Origin: Bacteroides stercoris ATCC 43183
Lineage (GTDB): Bacteria > Bacteroidota > Bacteroidia > Bacteroidales > Bacteroidaceae
Direction of reading: 5' to 3'
Length of the DNA stretch: 64,000 nt
NCBI RefSeq assembly: GCF_025147325.1
Contig: NZ_CP102262.1
Coordinates: 682,001-746,000, forward strand
The position numbers and the translations under genes were made by a program. Below are positions 16,398-63,091 of the stretch, one piece after another; position 1 is the stretch's first letter; the number at the start of each line of letters is the position of its first letter. Under the pieces are notes generated by a model, which did no database searches, was not told the DNA's origin, and worked only from the letters and a program-made list of their open reading frames with translations.

Positions 16398-16488
16398 TAT
16401 AATGGTCTTACACACCATTTCCCCATTGATAAACATCCGTTTTCCCCATTATAAATATACCAATCTATCAAGGATAACTTGCTTTTGC

Positions 16489-16598
16489 CTATACCTTTTC
16501 TTCGTTTTCCAACTGCGGGATGTCCGGTTTGCATATGCGGGATGAAGAGCCCGCAATTGGCAACCGTGGAGCCCGCAGTTGGAAAACGAGGTTTTTCC
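16489..16598. repeat. Array with 22-base period upstream of parE
   Basis: Five consecutive 22-base units start at 16489, 16511, 16533, 16555 and 16577. GCGGGATG recurs at 16515 and 16537, and GAGCCCGC at 16547 and 16569, each 22 bases apart. The first and last units share a TTTTCC ending. A perfect 17-base inverted repeat spans the array (16503-16519 with 16572-16588), and TGCGGG/CCCGCA pair inside it. The TTCCCCATT repeat at 16419 and 16442 (23 bases apart) may extend it leftward. The rest of the gap 16300-16712 has no gene. Confidence 0.7.
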
Positions 16599-16712
16599 TA
16601 TAGCCTAACAACCTTTTCAACCATACTTTTTCCTATTAAATACCCAGTAAACTGAAAAAAGTTTCAGGGCATATATTTGTTTACATAGGGTGTTTTATAT
16701 TGATTTTCTTAT

Positions 16713-30184: not shown

Positions 30185-30539
30185 AACCATTAAAATTAAA
30201 GAAGATACAGAAAAACCAACTCATTTAGCAACTTGGAAGATTCTGTGAAACGATTGGAAGTTTTTTGCAACTTATGCTACTTCCAATACAGACAAAGAAC
30301 CGGAATATTCCACGAAAAGCCCCAACAGCAAGCCTCGCTTATCCGATAGTTATCATATAGTCATTATATACACTTTATTTAAGTCAAGATGTCCAAGCGT
30401 GCACGAAAACAGTAAATATTCGCAAAAGAAAACTAAAAGAAATTCAGAAAAAGAGTAAATATTTGGGAAATATATGAAGAAGCTATACATTTGTTACGTG
30501 ATTTTTTTCATAGTATTAGATTTAAGGTTAACAAAGGTT
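30185..30539. other. A/T-rich gap with degenerate short repeats, no clear gene
   Basis: TTGGAAG occurs at 30233 and 30254 (21 bases apart). ATTGGAAGT (30253-30261) pairs with ACTTCCAAT (30279-30287), and a further GGAA at 30302 keeps a spacing near 22-23. A frame starting at 30474 looks like a signal peptide at first but runs through the terminator and antisense to dprA, so I do not call it. Confidence 0.45.
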
Positions 30540-30564
30540 GGAGTACAGCGGTACTCCTTTTTTT
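30540..30564 (+). terminator. Plus-strand terminator opposite the end of dprA
   Basis: GGAGTAC (30540-30546), a 4-base loop, GTACTCC (30551-30557), then seven T. The T tract is on the plus strand although both flanking genes are on the minus strand. A plus-strand transcript that would use it is not known. Confidence 0.6.
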
Positions 30565-31681
30565 ATGCCAATAAGCAATATACTCCTCCAACCAATGCCT
30601 TTACCACCCCTTTCATCTCCAGTTCGAAAAGCAAGGCGCTCATACGGTTTACGGGTATGTCCGCCTCCACTACCAGCGCATTGATATGCAAGTCTCCCTG
30701 ATGAGTCAGTATACGCACCACCAGCTCCTCCTCATCCGTCAGTTCCGGAAACAGATTGCGCTGGATACCGGCTGCTTTGGCAGCAGGCTCTGCACTCGCC
30801 CACCCCATTGTTTTTACGAACTCTTCGGCACTCTGTACAAGCGCAGCCTTATTATCCCGTATCAACCGGTTGCAGCCGATAGAAGCGGCATCCGTCACCC
30901 GCCCGGGCACGGCAAAGCAATCACGGTGATAGCCGTCGGCCAAATCCGCTGTAATCAAAGAACCGCCTTTAGCGGCAGATTCCACAACAATCGTCGCATC
31001 GCACATACCTGCCACAATACGGTTACGGCTGACAAAGTTATGCCTGTCCGGAGTAGTTTCGGATAAGAACTCGGTAAGCAAACCGCCGTTGACCAACATA
31101 TCGACAGCCGTCTTACGATGTACAGAAGGATAGATACGGTCCAAACCGTGAGCCAGAACGGCAACAGTAGACATATTATCGGCCAGGGCGGCACGATGTG
31201 CATGAATATCAATGCCGTAGGCGAGACCGCTCACTATCAGGGCATCAGGGAGAAGCACGGATAAATCGTGCACGAAATCCGTACAAAACCGTTTGCCGTA
31301 CTCCGTTGCACGGCGCGTACCTACCATATTGATAACATGTAAACGGTTAAAATCAGTGTTTCCCTTGAAAAACATGACAATCGGCGCATCCTCACATTCC
31401 CGCAGACGGGAAGGATAGGCCTCATCCCGCAAAGTAAGACAAGTCAGGCGGTTCTTTTCCACAAACTCCATTTCACGTTCGGCACGAAGAAAAGCGGCAG
31501 GACAGTCAAGAGCCGTAATTATCGAGGAATTCACGCCGGGCAGACGTTCCGGCAATTCCTTACGATACCCGAAAACGTCAACGGCGCTACCTATGGCATC
31601 TATTAAACGCTTTGCCCCGATATGTCCTATACCGGGACAGAGCGTAAGAGCTATACTGCAAAGACGTTCGTCCTTATTCAT
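30563..31681 (-). CDS. dprA: DNA-processing protein DprA
   Basis: DprA binds single-stranded DNA during uptake and loads RecA. The product has 372 residues from ATG 31681; a longer start at 31699 overlaps the upstream gene more. An N-terminal helical (SAM/HhH-like) region with LCPGIGHIGAKRLIDAIGS is followed by the Rossmann-like DprA core. Key motifs are NMVGTRRATEYGKRF, SGLAYGIDIHAHRAAL, HGLDRIYPSVHR, FVSRNRIVAGMCDATIVVESAAKGGSLITA and FAVPGRV. A C-terminal winged-helix domain is visible (about residues 305-370). The gene is last of a four-gene operon and overlaps the thioesterase gene by 8 bases. Confidence 0.95.
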   Translation of the reverse strand: MNKDERLCSIALTLCPGIGHIGAKRLIDAIGSAVDVFGYRKELPERLPGVNSSIITALDCPAAFLRAEREMEFVEKNRLTCLTLRDEAYPSRLRECEDAPIVMFFKGNTDFNRLHVINMVGTRRATEYGKRFCTDFVHDLSVLLPDALIVSGLAYGIDIHAHRAALADNMSTVAVLAHGLDRIYPSVHRKTAVDMLVNGGLLTEFLSETTPDRHNFVSRNRIVAGMCDATIVVESAAKGGSLITADLADGYHRDCFAVPGRVTDAASIGCNRLIRDNKAALVQSAEEFVKTMGWASAEPAAKAAGIQRNLFPELTDEEELVVRILTHQGDLHINALVVEADIPVNRMSALLFELEMKGVVKALVGGVYCLLA

Positions 31682-35020: not shown

Positions 35021-35058
35021 TTTAAATTATCTTACAACCCCAACCAAAAGAGTGCCCT

Positions 35059-35146
35059 GCTTTTCTATGGGTCGGCAATCATCCGCCGAGCGAACCTCAT
35101 TCAGTCAGGGAGTGAAAGACAATGAGTCAGGGACTGGCATCATTTG
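35059..35146. repeat. Array with 22-base period between dusB and the AUR1-like PAP2 gene
   Basis: Units start at 35059, 35081, 35103 and 35125. AGTCAGGGA is identical at 35103 and 35125, exactly 22 bases apart. All four units end with a CAAT or CATT-like stretch. The last unit reaches into the stop codon region of the PAP2 gene at 35140. No hairpin with a T tract is present, although the genes are convergent. Confidence 0.6.
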
Positions 35147-37103: not shown

Positions 37104-37138
37104 GTTATGAATTATGAATTTTATAAATTATGAATTAT
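37104..37138. repeat. Degenerate 7-base-period repeat upstream of the epimerase-like gene
   Basis: Five consecutive heptamers of the type (A/G)ATTATGA fill 37104-37138, beginning GTTATGA then ATTATGA. The remaining gap to 37190 also shows a weak 7-base rhythm on the minus strand (GTGAAAT, GTGAAGT). There is no other feature in the gap. Confidence 0.55.
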
Positions 37139-40985: not shown

Positions 40986-41073
40986 ACCTGCATATTCAAG
41001 GTATCCCAGTCCTATACTCAGAATACTTCAGTCACATAGGTAGTCTCTGTATAGGACTGAGCACATAACTCAT
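40986..41073. repeat. Weak 22-base-period array with perfect inverted repeat between convergent genes
   Basis: CAGTCCTATAC (41007-41017) and GTATAGGACTG (41049-41059) are perfect reverse complements. Within the same stretch AGTC recurs at 41008 and 41030, 22 bases apart, and ATAnTCA-like cores fall at the same unit position at 40992 and 41014. The hairpin may stop both convergent transcripts, although there is no long T tract. Confidence 0.45.
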
Positions 41074-43082: not shown

Positions 43083-43174
43083 TTTTATGATTTCAGAATT
43101 ATAATCCATATCATATGCGTAATAGTAAAAATGAAATCATACCGGAATAAATCATAAATTATAAATCATAAATA
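43083..43174. repeat. 7-base-period repeat with inverted arms, downstream of cysE
   Basis: Four exact heptads fill 43147-43174, alternating ATAAATC and ATAAATT-like units. TATGATTTCA (43086-43095) is the reverse complement of TGAAATCATA (43132-43141). The element fills the gap to the methyltransferase gene, whose ATG is at 43180. Confidence 0.6.
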
Positions 43175-43179
43175 AGTAG

Positions 43180-44625
43180 ATGAGCGAACAATCATTCGAA
43201 ATGATTGCCAAAACTTTCCAGGGACTGGAAGAAACATTGGCACAGGAACTGACCTCTTTGGGTGCAGACGAGATACAGATAGGACGTCGTATGGTATCAT
43301 TCCGCGGCGACAAGGAAATGATGTACAAGGCGAATTTCTGCCTGCGGACCGCTATCCGCATCCTGAAACCTATCAAACAGTTTGTAGCGAAAAATGCCGA
43401 TGAGGTGTATGAACAGATCAAGGCAATCCACTGGGAAGATTATCTGGATATAGATAAAACTTTCGCCGTAGACGCAGTTGTGTTCAGCGAGGAATTCCGC
43501 CATTCCAAATTTGTTTCCTACAAAGTGAAGGATGCCATTGTGGACTATTTCCGGGATGCATACGACAAACGCCCGTCCGTACGCATCAGCAAGCCGGATG
43601 TATTATTGAACATTCACATTGCAGAAACCAAATGCACTCTTTCTCTCGATTCATCCGGCGAGTCTCTGCACCGCCGCGGTTATCGTCAGGAAGCCGTGGA
43701 AGCTCCTCTGAATGAGGTTTTGGCAGCCGGCATGATATTAATGAGCGGTTGGCACGGAGAATGTGACCTGATAGACCCGATGTGCGGCTCGGGAACAATC
43801 CCCATCGAAGCTGCCTTGATAGCCAGGAATATCGCACCGGGCGTATTCCGTAAGGAGTTTGCTTTTGAAAAATGGATTGATTTCGACCAGGAGCTGTTCG
43901 ATAAGATTTATAACGATGACAGCCAGGAACGTGAATTCGCTCATAAGATATACGGATACGACAACAACCCGAAAGCCAACGAAATCGCAACCCATAACAT
44001 CAAGGCAGCAGGCGTATCCAAAGACGTAACGCTGAAGTTGCAACCTTTCCAGCAGTTTGAGCAACCTAAGGAAAAGGCTGTTATCATTACCAACCCGCCT
44101 TATGGAGAGCGTATATCTACCAACGACCTGCTGGGCTTATACTCTATGATTGGCGAACGGCTGAAACACGCGTTTACAGGCAACACCGCGTGGATACTTT
44201 CTTATCGTGAAGAATGCTTCGATCAAATCGGATTGAAACCTACTGCCAAGATACCTCTGTTCAACGGTGCTCTGGAATGTGAGTTCCGTAAATACGAAAT
44301 CTTCGACGGAAAATACAAAGAATTCAAAAAGCAGGAAAGCGAAGAGGGTAATAAAGAGTATAGACCTTACGCTGCAAGAGAAAAAAGAGAATTCAAGACC
44401 GGAGAAAGAAGAGAGTTTAAATCCGGAGAGAAAAGGGAATTCAAGCCGAGAGAGAGAAGAGAATTCAAATCGGATGATAAACGGGAGTTCAAGCCTCGTG
44501 AATACAGAAAACCGGCAGACGGAGAATGGAAACCGAAGCGAGAATTTGACAGAGAGCGAGAATTTAATAAAGAACGTAAACCGGGAGAGTTTCGGAAACG
44601 GAACAACGAACGGAATAACGACTGA
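43180..44625 (+). CDS. THUMP-domain RNA methyltransferase with repetitive charged C-terminal tail
   Basis: The product (481 residues) is an RlmL/YpsC-type 23S rRNA guanine-N2 methyltransferase. A THUMP domain is at about residues 1-160. The methyltransferase core contains DLIDPMCGSGTIPIEAALIARNIAPG (SAM site) and the catalytic motif ITNPPYGER. The core ends near residue 390. The last about 85 residues are unusual. They hold five 8-residue repeats of the type (K/R)REFKxxE encoded at 44383-44502, followed by further charged, glycine-poor sequence. This tail may bind RNA or ribosomes (inference). The S9 peptidase gene starts 21 bases later. Confidence 0.9.
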   Translation: MSEQSFEMIAKTFQGLEETLAQELTSLGADEIQIGRRMVSFRGDKEMMYKANFCLRTAIRILKPIKQFVAKNADEVYEQIKAIHWEDYLDIDKTFAVDAVVFSEEFRHSKFVSYKVKDAIVDYFRDAYDKRPSVRISKPDVLLNIHIAETKCTLSLDSSGESLHRRGYRQEAVEAPLNEVLAAGMILMSGWHGECDLIDPMCGSGTIPIEAALIARNIAPGVFRKEFAFEKWIDFDQELFDKIYNDDSQEREFAHKIYGYDNNPKANEIATHNIKAAGVSKDVTLKLQPFQQFEQPKEKAVIITNPPYGERISTNDLLGLYSMIGERLKHAFTGNTAWILSYREECFDQIGLKPTAKIPLFNGALECEFRKYEIFDGKYKEFKKQESEEGNKEYRPYAAREKREFKTGERREFKSGEKREFKPRERREFKSDDKREFKPREYRKPADGEWKPKREFDREREFNKERKPGEFRKRNNERNND

Positions 44626-52262: not shown

Positions 52263-52393
52263 AAAGTCCGGGAGTTCTCAGACAAAAGACGGGGCATTTT
52301 CTTCAAAAGACCGGGAGTTTTGCACGAAAAGTCTGGGAGTTTTACCCCGAAAGTCCCGGTCTTTTGCGCGGAAAGCTCAGGAGTTTTGAGCAG
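52263..52393. repeat. Six-unit array with 22-base period upstream of the DUF2723 gene
   Basis: AAAG begins units at 52263, 52285, 52306, 52328, 52350 and 52372, with spacings of 22, 21, 22, 22 and 22. Most units continue with a CCGGGAGTTTT-like core (52311, 52333 and others). AAAAGACCGGGA (52305-52316) is the reverse complement of TCCCGGTCTTTT (52354-52365), so some units are inverted relative to each other. The promoter of the next gene lies 90 bases further on. Confidence 0.8.
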
Positions 52394-55907: not shown

Positions 55908-56010
55908 CCGGTACACGGTAGCGAATGAGCGGATTACCGCAGGTACATCCTGCCGGTAAACCTGCCATTCGCCACCGGATGCCCAGCATCAGTCAATAAC
56001 CGTTAACCAC
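55908..56010. repeat. Structured repeat upstream of the polysaccharide deacetylase gene
   Basis: GCGAATG (55921-55927) pairs with CATTCGC (55966-55972), and GCAGGT (55939-55944) with ACCTGC (55960-55965), forming a nested hairpin. CCGGTA or CCGGAT-like cores fall at 55908, 55930, 55953 and 55975, 22 to 23 bases apart. It may be a degenerate member of the 22-base-period arrays. Confidence 0.45.
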
Positions 56011-59845: not shown

Positions 59846-59980
59846 GCAAAAGAAAACGGCAAAACATTGCTTTTTTGTCCTAATTATCTATCAATATTGT
59901 ACAAAGAAAGGAAAAATCATCAGAAATGTCCTAATATTGAATGAATAAATCAAAAGAAAAAATAAAAGAGAATCCTATAG

Positions 59981-60068
59981 TTGCCAACCGTGCCATCTAT
60001 ATGGCAAACCCGTGCCATATAATAGACAAAGTTGTGCCACTATATTGGCACAACTCATATACTAATGA
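59981..60068. repeat. Regular 22-base-period array between kduI and tRNA-Gln
   Basis: Four units start at 59981, 60003, 60025 and 60047. GTGCCA occurs at the same position in three units (59990, 60012 and 60034), exactly 22 bases apart. CCGTGCCAT is identical in the first two. GTTGTGCCA (60031-60039) pairs with TGGCACAAC (60046-60054), and TGCCAT with ATGGCA inside the first two units. The array ends at the tRNA-Gln terminator. The stretch 59846-59980 before it is A-rich with nothing recognisable. Confidence 0.8.
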
Positions 60069-60106
60069 AAAAAGCTCCGACAATCATCGACTGTCGGAGC
60101 TTTTTT
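60068..60106 (-). terminator. Terminator of tRNA-Gln
   Basis: GCTCCGACA (60074-60082) and TGTCGGAGC (60092-60100) form a perfect stem. It is flanked by A6 on the left and T6 on the right, so it can work on either strand; here it follows the minus-strand tRNA. Confidence 0.85.
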
Positions 60107-60108
60107 CG

Positions 60109-60179
60109 TTGGACTACCAAGATTCGAACTTGGACAAACAGAACCAAAACCTGTTGTGCTACCATTACACCATAGTCCA
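60109..60179 (-). tRNA. tRNA-Gln (anticodon TTG)
   Basis: On the minus strand the acceptor TGGACTA pairs perfectly with TAGTCCA. The anticodon loop TTTTGGT carries TTG (plus 60145-60147), and the T arm has AGTTCGAAT. A discriminator follows at 60109 and CCA is not encoded. The T-start of the acceptor is usual for glutamine tRNAs. Confidence 0.95.
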
Positions 60180-62928: not shown

Positions 62929-63087
62929 AAGTATAAGGTATAATGTAAAATATAGAGGGGGATATGAAAAAACGGGCTACAGGTAGTGCTGCTAAGATTC
63001 CGCAGTCTGCCCGCCGCCCGTTATTGCTTCGTTACGATTATAAATGTATCCGACAGGCTTATAACTTATAATTCATAACTTATACTT
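62929..63087. repeat. Facing 7-base-period repeats flanking a terminator between hemD and rnpA
   Basis: Heptads AAGTATA, AGGTATA and related words fill 62929-62956. CTTATAA-type heptads (CTTATAA twice, then TTCATAA) fill 63058-63085. The outer ends AAGTATAAG (62929-62937) and CTTATACTT (63079-63087) are perfect reverse complements, so the two arms could close the whole 140-base interval into one loop. Confidence 0.6.
62967..63022 (-). terminator. Probable terminator after hemD
   Basis: AACGGGC (62971-62977) pairs with GCCCGTT (63016-63022). On the minus strand a six-T run follows the stem. The interior can pair further. If active it would separate hemD from rnpA. Confidence 0.55.
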
Positions 63088-63091
63088 CTTT

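What the first reader, a model, noticed from the sequence alone, without database searches (positions are those of the whole stretch)
59981..60068. A dispersed class of intergenic arrays with an exact 22-base period
Seen directly: four consecutive 22-base units with GTGCCA at 59990, 60012 and 60034. Similar 22-base-period arrays with other unit sequences occur at 52263-52393, 16489-16598 and 35059-35146, and weaker ones at 40986-41073, 55908-56010 and 30231-30310. All are outside genes and beside unrelated functions. Period and self-complementarity are kept while the unit sequence differs. Inference: 22 bases is about two helical turns, so a protein could bind one face of the DNA, or the transcript could form a chain of hairpins. 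I know of no named Bacteroides repeat with these properties.
Basis: partly seen in the sequence, partly recalled or inferred. Interest (0 to 1): 0.78.

Follow-up and report, generated by a model that had tools for sequence, protein, structure and literature searches.

The report
Family-swapping 22-base palindrome arrays between genes
Gaps between genes in this Bacteroides and its relatives carry short strings of mirror-image DNA sites that repeat every 22 bases; the sites belong to many unrelated sequence families that spread and replace one another while the 22-base spacing stays, which points to an undescribed kind of mobile or protein-bound DNA element.

Summary
The class is real. In 28% of this genome (511 gaps), 46 windows score 17 or more at lags 12-43: 27 at lag 22, 6 at 21, 6 at 23; a Markov copy gave one, at lag 32. 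The arrays at 59981, 52263, 16489 and 35059 are confirmed, 40986 is borderline, 55908 and 30231 are not supported. Units are dyads, two inverted half-sites each. By eye 36 arrays form at least 14 sequence families, 11 of them with period 22. Lag 22 also leads in 80 Bacteroidales loci. Families are dispersed and patchy, and one orthologous gap holds at least eight families in 9 of 22 Bacteroides. In the best-sampled family half-sites are conserved and strictly phased, spacers nearly free, and core arm changes uncompensated. Best reading: dispersing, REP/MITE-like non-autonomous elements whose core is a phased row of sites for a sequence-specific factor. Factor and mobilising enzyme are unknown; RAYT (PF01797) is absent from this genome. 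A hairpin role in RNA stays open.

The parts
59964..60064 (.). Array of the given finding, GTGCCA..TGGCAC family, period 22, four units (core 59981-60056), between the tRNA-Gln terminator and kduI
   Evidence: Lag-22 score 21.2, Markov p 0.001; half-site positions; same family by eye at C1:678500 and C1:3507571 and in the orthologous gap of G022
60029..60056 (-). Last unit of the array, listed as a terminator-like hairpin on the minus strand (11 pairs, T-rich tail)
   Evidence: Consensus scan
60067..60107 (-). Hairpin with T-run, terminator-like, directly 3' of tRNA-Gln and before the array
60108..60179 (-). tRNA-Gln(TTG) beside the array
   Evidence: ARAGORN, Rfam RF00005
58928..59770 (-). 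KduI/IolB-family gene on the other side of the array
   Evidence: Pfam PF04962
60272..61564 (-). tyrS, anchor used to compare the orthologous gap
   Evidence: Pfam PF00579
52251..52445 (.). Array of the AAAGTCCGGGAGTTTTGC / AAATGCC family, period 22 (core 52263-52393)
   Evidence: Lag-22 score 31.3; related units by eye at C1:772610 and C1:2219053
16415..16617 (.). Array of the CCCGC/TTTTCC family, period 22; core 16496-16596 with inverted ends CGTTTTCC..GGAAAACG
   Evidence: Lag-22 score 28.2; 13 distinct loci in this genome and matches in 5 other Bacteroides of 60 genomes
35059..35139 (.). Short array of the TCAGGGAGTGAA family between convergent dus and PAP2 genes
   Evidence: Lag-22 score 15.2, p 0.001; same unit at C1:2768432; orthologous gap carries other families
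40986..41072 (.). Borderline lag-22 signal, not counted as an array
   Evidence: Score 12.4, p 0.004

Best explanation
The arrays are dispersing, non-autonomous intergenic elements of Bacteroidales. Each is a row of dyad units (mostly about 4-8; shorter rows would escape my scan), a unit being two inverted half-sites, with a dyad-to-dyad pitch of 22 (21-23) bases. Shown: they form many unrelated sequence families; for the two families searched genome by genome, copies sit at many scattered loci and occur in few species; an orthologous gap can hold no array, the same family or another family. Shown for one family: half-sites and spacing are conserved while spacers drift. Inferred: each family is read by a sequence-specific factor that binds the dyads in phase along the double helix, either a dispersal enzyme or a host DNA-binding protein. 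Copies spread by transposition-like events and grow or shrink by whole units. Not known: the factor, the enzyme, and whether the cell gains anything.
For: Period: this genome; 80 Bacteroidales loci; in the repeat, 25 of 58 windows at score 18 have lag 22, in 15 loci, and a Markov copy gave none. Families: by eye. Dispersal: a strict GTACC pattern gives 35 hits (15 loci) here, 35 (11 loci) in G031, 21 in G019 and 0-2 in each of the other 57 genomes; the reversed-pattern control gave 6 hits in all 60. The CCCGC family has 13 distinct loci here and no match in G031, the nearest of the 60 by TyrS. Gain, loss, replacement: dus/PAP2 gap, tyrS gap, C1:762283, and a block of about 300 bp here and not in G031 at C1:634709. 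In G019 three copies with alignable flanks hold 2, 4 and 6 dyads, 44-bp steps; one of them lies inside a 54-nt inverted repeat. Phased sequence-specific sites. Over 10 orthologous GTACC arrays, arms are 94.6% identical (454 of 480), spacers 65.8% (626 of 952), flanks 79.5% (2092 of 2633), while 61 array-free gaps of the same two genomes show 134 indel events per 796 substitutions.
Against: No target-site duplication, no terminal repeat common to the families and no mobilising gene was found. Ten of the 11 G031 GTACC loci are orthologous to loci here, so that family's spread is older than the split. The arm mask was set on intact own half-sites, and arms align to arms in any register, so its contrast is inflated. 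Some signs favour pairing: inner pairs of 22 own GTACC units are complementary more often than shuffled ones at two of three positions (p 0.03, 0.007, 0.23), pair 8-10 of 149 units has p 0.04, and at pair 6-12 there are 6 compensated against 1 uncompensated double change, though pairing there is not above shuffles; the GTTGAC array has a double change in G018 that keeps its dyad. Different-family sharing of a gap by this genome and G031 alone is about what chance would give (my rough estimate, about 1 of 107 gaps). Beside the 281 opposite steps there are 63 steps between half-sites of one orientation, where a half-site is lost or the array ends.
Confidence: 0.5

Rival explanations
1. RNA hairpin chain: the arrays act in transcripts as rows of small hairpins, ending transcription or protecting mRNA ends, as REP hairpins are thought to do in enterobacteria.
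For: Strong folding on both strands (31 and 30 of 36 arrays with z below -2; 11 and 9 of 40 controls). One unit of the given array scores as a terminator-like site. Of 20 arrays in tandem gaps 13 are nearer the upstream gene's 3' end. Some dyads keep symmetry through inner changes, such as GTACCTTAGTAAGGTAC and GTACCAGCAGCTGGTAC.
Against: No preference for convergent gaps: 7 convergent, 7 divergent, 20 tandem, 2 at block ends of 36 arrays, against 84, 112, 294 and 21 of 511 gaps. Core arms of the GTACC family keep one sequence with no compensated change at pairs 3-5. Loop and linker lengths do not vary, which a hairpin chain would not require.
Confidence: 0.25
2. Neutral minisatellites: replication slippage or hairpin-templated copying made tandem repeats that drift without function.
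For: Unit number differs between orthologues and between G019 copies by whole units. Edges of several arrays look more degenerate than their centres (by eye).
Against: Slippage sets no common period, yet 11 of 14 families have 22. Drift would hit arms and spacers alike, yet arms are kept and spacers are not. Slippage does not move one family to 15 loci.
Confidence: 0.13
3. Ordinary REP/REPIN elements moved by a REP-associated tyrosine transposase (RAYT).
For: Dispersed short intergenic palindromes in alternating orientation, lineage-specific families (REPIN abstract, PMC3116915).
Against: Y1_Tnp (PF01797) has no match in 8 of 13 Bacteroides searched, this genome among them; the control rang in 5 of 14 known genomes. 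In three of the five genomes that have it (G031, G018, G047) the gene is flanked by another palindrome (AGCCCGGGGTAACACCCCGGG and variants) and by tandem repeats of lag 20 or 18, not 22; in the other two (G044, G012) I saw no such repeat beside it.
Confidence: 0.08

Closest known systems
BrickBuilt minisatellite/MITE of Porphyromonas gingivalis (PMC4596501)
   Same: Bacteroidales; intergenic; 23-nt tandem repeats predicted to fold; 19 dispersed copies of varying unit number; repeats carried in a MITE with inverted ends, as in one G019 copy here. The same paper notes earlier mention of 22- and 23-nt repeats in strain W83.
   Different: One sequence family with leader and tail, in P. gingivalis and P. 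gulae; described as direct repeats. Here at least 14 families in one genome share the pitch; in most I saw no leader, tail or IS5-like ends.
REP/BIME and REPIN elements, including GTAG and CGTC repeats (PMC3733652, PMC3116915)
   Same: Intergenic palindromes in alternating orientation, multi-copy, lineage-specific families. CGTC repeats are reported from Bacteroidetes too and are said to lack a dedicated transposase (92 passages).
   Different: REP units are 20-40 bp with a GTAG or CGTC tag at one end. Here one 22-base pitch holds over many families, half-sites are short, and no tag is common to the families.
CRISPR arrays
   Same: Short dyad-symmetric repeats at constant spacing with variable spacers.
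   Different: Spacers of about 5-9 bases cannot hold targets, and one family sits at many loci.
Operator or centromere-type arrays bound by oligomerising DNA-binding proteins (for example ParR/parC, MetJ boxes; recalled, no call)
   Same: Short half-sites in rigid phase, spacer sequence free.
   Different: Those sit at one or a few loci with a known protein; here 102 dyads of one family lie at 17 loci of the chromosome and no protein is known.

Membership tests
REP/REPIN moved by RAYT | Short imperfect palindromes, multi-copy, intergenic | tested here: met
REP/REPIN moved by RAYT | A RAYT (Y1_Tnp) gene in the genome, flanked by the repeat | tested here: not met
   No PF01797 match in G000; where present in five relatives, no period-22 array beside it
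REP (GTAG or CGTC type) | GTAG or CGTC tag at one end of the palindrome | tested here: inconclusive
   By eye only: GTAG appears in some GTACC units as a variant of GGTAC, CGTC in the array at C1:3270501 and in some CCCGC copies; no tag common to the families
BrickBuilt | 23-nt unit AGAYCATARTATCCTCTCRTRTG | tested here: not met
   No array listed shows that unit (compared by eye with the consensus)
BrickBuilt | Tandem units inside a MITE with terminal inverted repeats | tested here: inconclusive
   Seen in one of four G019 pieces scanned (54-nt arms, 72% complementary); CCCGC copies have inverted ends CGTTTTCC..GGAAAACG (by eye); not looked for systematically
MITE in general | Target-site duplication at a filled site against an empty site | tested here: inconclusive
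   Seven gap pairs aligned; no clear duplication, flanks often poorly alignable
Operator-type protein-binding array | Half-site sequence conserved, phase fixed, spacer free | tested here: met
   In numbers for the GTACC family only; position lists for seven further arrays show the same step
Operator-type protein-binding array | A protein that binds it | not testable with these tools
   No candidate gene identified
CRISPR | Spacers long enough to hold targets | tested here: not met
   Spacers about 5-9 bases; cas genes were not searched for

The most novel reading that the evidence does not exclude
Bacteroidales have their own class of selfish or regulatory DNA: phase-locked dyad arrays with one common pitch of 22 bases, of which a lineage carries a dozen or more sequence families, each read by its own fast-changing, so far unknown sequence-specific protein or hairpin-processing enzyme. 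The pitch is a property of that protein fold and is kept while recognition sequences turn over, so that the same gap is filled again and again by different families.
Probability: 0.33. Interest if true: 0.85.

Novelty: new variant of a known kind. Interest (0 to 1): 0.7.

Why it matters
About one array per 30 kb (36 in 1.124 Mb) makes this one of the commoner structured intergenic features of a dominant gut genus, yet Rfam had no match at the window's arrays or at 14 own GTACC loci and four period-23 arrays, and nothing in the listings of ten full-text searches named it in Bacteroides. A common pitch over unrelated sequences means that something measures 22 bases; finding it would give either a new dispersal system or a new chromosome-binding factor. 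The arrays can also confound gene calling, promoter design and comparison of gaps, and may serve as fast-changing markers.

Tried and rejected
RAYT/REPIN as mobiliser: not met. Rfam: in the window only FopS sRNA and two tRNAs at gathering scores. DNA search with the 52263 array in this genome: 6 matches, the array itself on both strands and four short weak ones. The first covariation test asked for 9 of 10 arm matches, so compensated double changes could not appear; its 'outer' result is void and was redone with 7 of 10. Reading 11 bases as a turn of A- or B-form helix: dropped, since any palindromic unit of period 22 has two dyad centres 11 apart. Pooled autocorrelation is high at lags 21-23 and 44 but also at 7-9 and 11, so I rely on the local scans. 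A Fisher test of array sharing between this genome and G031 (5 both, 5 own only, 4 G031 only, 93 neither of 107 gaps; p 0.00025) is not controlled for gap length. Controls outside the order are small: 10 genomes labelled 'same class' (presumably other orders) 0 windows at lags 20-24 in 90 gaps, 10 of other classes 1 (lag 24) in 75 gaps, E. coli K-12 three 50-kb stretches 0 in 70 gaps. One window in an rRNA region (C1:405444, lag 24) was dropped from the 37, leaving 36; two of these (676261, 1911370) fit no family. The gap beside the ABC-transporter gene was to be compared next (30 loci) and was not analysed. The tyrS gap output was cut, so I saw only part of its 30 genus loci. CCCGC counts are lower bounds: only 14 of 19 first-look candidates were scored here and 14 of 18 in G018.

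Papers: PMC4596501 read in sections 4 (part 1 of 5), 7 (part 1 of 2), 8, and passages; PMC3733652, PMC5771137, PMC6006769, PMC7366714 and PMC12306157 passages only; PMC3116915 abstract and outline; all others search listings only.

Full report
What was checked. The window is C1:682001-746000 of a one-contig 4.0-Mb genome, a Bacteroides close to B. gallinarum (TyrS 97% identical). The array at 59981 is as described: four units with GTGCCA at 59990, 60012 and 60034, a TTGCCA at 59981 and inverted half-sites at 60002 and 60046. It lies between the terminator-like hairpin of tRNA-Gln and kduI. Of the six other places named, three are confirmed (52263, 16489, 35059), one is borderline (40986) and two are not supported (55908, 30231).

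Is it more than chance? I took 1,124,000 bases of the genome (28%), masked genes by a hexamer score and tRNAs by ARAGORN, and scanned 511 gaps for local self-match at lags 12-43. Of 46 windows with score 17 or more, 27 have lag 22, 6 lag 21, 6 lag 23, 1 lag 24; the other lags have 0-2 (recounted). A first-order Markov copy of the same gaps gave one window, at lag 32. Ten Markov copies gave 0.4 gaps each at lag 22 and score 15, against 27 real gaps. Pooled autocorrelation is raised at lags 21-23 and 44, but also at 7-9 and 11; the 21-23 part is carried more by G and C than by A and T.

What the arrays look like. Each unit holds two inverted half-sites, for example GTACCA-N5-TGGTAC-N5. The 36 kept arrays fall by eye into at least 14 families with unrelated half-sites: GTACC (5 arrays), CCCGC/TTTTCC (4), GACACCCGGGTGTC (4), GTGCC (3), GTTAGACAG (3), AAATGCC (3), AAGTAGAACTTTA (3), GTTTAA (2), TGTGCAG (2), TCAGGG (1, plus the weak window array), and four single ones; two arrays were not placed. 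Eleven families have period 22, two 23, one 21. All four confirmed families of the window recur elsewhere in the genome. The scan needs about four units, so shorter rows are missed. Arrays lie in 20 tandem, 7 convergent and 7 divergent gaps and 2 at block ends, in line with all gaps.

How wide is it? In 80 tyrS loci of other genomes, nearly all titled as Bacteroidales or Bacteroidetes (the best 80 of a capped list; 1.29 Mb, 529 gaps), lag 22 is again the top: 18 of 53 kept windows at score 20 (one of the 53 a run of N), next best 5 each for lags 16 and 11. Repeated on 526 N-free gaps at score 18, 25 of 58 windows have lag 22, in 15 loci, and a Markov copy gave none. Units there are again different sequences. 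In small samples from outside the order I saw no window at lags 21-23.

Dispersal and turnover. A strict GTACC pattern gives 35 hits at 15 loci here, 35 at 11 loci in G031, 21 in G019, and 0-2 in each of the other 57 genomes; the reversed pattern gives 6 in all. Ten of the 11 G031 loci are orthologous to loci here. The CCCGC family has 13 distinct loci here, 6 matches in G018, 6 in G042, 3 each in G056 and G043, 1 in G057, and none in the other 54 of 60, G031 included. So these families have patchy ranges. Gap by gap, the convergent dus/PAP2 gap (window 35021-35139) was found with both genes in 22 of the 30 loci given (of 60 genomes searched); 9 of the 22 carry an array of period 22-24, in at least eight families by eye. 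The tyrS/tRNA-Gln gap has the GTGCC family here and in G022, a GTTTCC-type array in G056 and at most a remnant in G031. At C1:762283 two relatives have a GTTAGACAG array where this genome has none. At C1:634709 this genome has a block of about 300 bp with a CCCGC array that G031 lacks, flanks alignable. In G019 three copies of a GTACCGAGTC family hold 2, 4 and 6 dyads, 44-bp steps, between alignable flanks, and one copy is enclosed by a 54-nt inverted repeat.

How it most likely works. Two tests speak for a sequence-specific, phased reader. First, in GTACC units from 28 arrays (102 here, 63 in G031, 149 distinct) the TACC and GGTA arms are 89-100% conserved per column and the seven inner bases much less so; pairs 3, 4 and 5 show 26, 24 and 4 single changes and no compensated double change. 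Pair 6-12 has 6 compensated and 1 uncompensated double change but is not paired above shuffles; pairs 1-17 (6 against 9), 7-11 (21 against 30) and 8-10 (26 against 41; p 0.04) show no strong pairing either (units were chosen with at least 7 of 10 arm matches). Second, steps between adjacent opposite half-sites are 11 in 126 of 145 and 117 of 136 cases, and 10 or 12 in two cases; the rest are mainly lost half-sites, overlaps and array ends, and 63 further steps join half-sites of one orientation. TACC-to-TACC distances peak at 22, 44, 66, 88 and 110. Between this genome and G031, arms of 10 orthologous arrays are 94.6% identical, spacers 65.8%, flanks 79.5%, while 61 array-free gaps of the pair, filtered for length and identity, have one indel per six substitutions. 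Free spacers of fixed length suit sites on a helix. Against this, folding is strong, one unit of the given array scores as a terminator-like hairpin, inner pairs are complementary above shuffles at two of three positions in 22 own units, and the GTTGAC array in G018 has a double change that keeps its dyad. A hairpin role in RNA or single-stranded DNA therefore stays open.

What is not known. I found no mobilising gene. RAYT, the enzyme of REP elements, has no PF01797 match here; in five relatives that have one, no period-22 array lies beside it, though in three of them another palindrome and tandem repeats of lag 18-20 do. I saw no target-site duplication. GTACC loci share a loose head motif at about half of the arrays (by eye), which hints at a defined end but was not tested.

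Relation to known things. BrickBuilt of P. gingivalis (PMC4596501) is the nearest in kind: 23-nt tandem repeats in a MITE, dispersed, foldable. REP/REPIN elements are alike in architecture, and CGTC-type REPs are reported from Bacteroidetes (PMC3733652). What I read of either does not describe the feature that marks this class: one pitch held over many unrelated families. Hence 'new variant of a known kind'. Listings of ten paper searches named nothing like it in Bacteroides; subscription papers are mostly not held, so this is no proof of absence.

Noticed in passing
window 30498-30567 (+): Full match to Rfam RF04319, FopS, a family of paralogous Bacteroidetes sRNAs (72.5 bits, gathering 56); a second copy lies at L029:11893-11964.
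   Followed up: no
L198, L199, L200; G031 gap orthologous to C1:650220: Y1_Tnp (RAYT-like) genes of three relatives are flanked by a palindrome AGCCCGGGGTAACACCCCGGG (with variants) and by tandem repeats of lag 20 or 18; the palindrome also forms a long inverted element in a G031 gap. It looks like the true REPIN of these species.
   Followed up: partly
L357:1366-1584: In G019 an array sits inside a 54-nt inverted repeat (CTCCCCTCCTG..GGAGGAGGGGAG); a similar GGAGGAGGGG palindrome without an array lies in the dus/PAP2 gap of G056 (L256).
   Followed up: partly
L008:12982-13070, L029:11476-11564, L040:16711-16800: Three of the four near-identical period-23 arrays GACACCCGGGTGTC lie about 800 bases upstream of 16S rRNA genes; the fourth (L007:3572) has no rRNA in its 20-kb stretch.
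   Followed up: partly
window 44378-44495: In-gene tandem repeat of 48 bp (2.5 copies) in the ORF 43180-44625.
   Followed up: no
window 37105-37138, 43147-43173, 63058-63088: AT-rich repeats of 7, 14 or 16 bases in gaps between genes; lag 7 is the strongest lag of the pooled gap spectrum.
   Followed up: no
GTACC-family loci: A loose common motif TTATAATCAA..GATACGT directly outside one end of about half the arrays, followed by an aberrant first unit GTACCAAnnnATTTC.
   Followed up: partly
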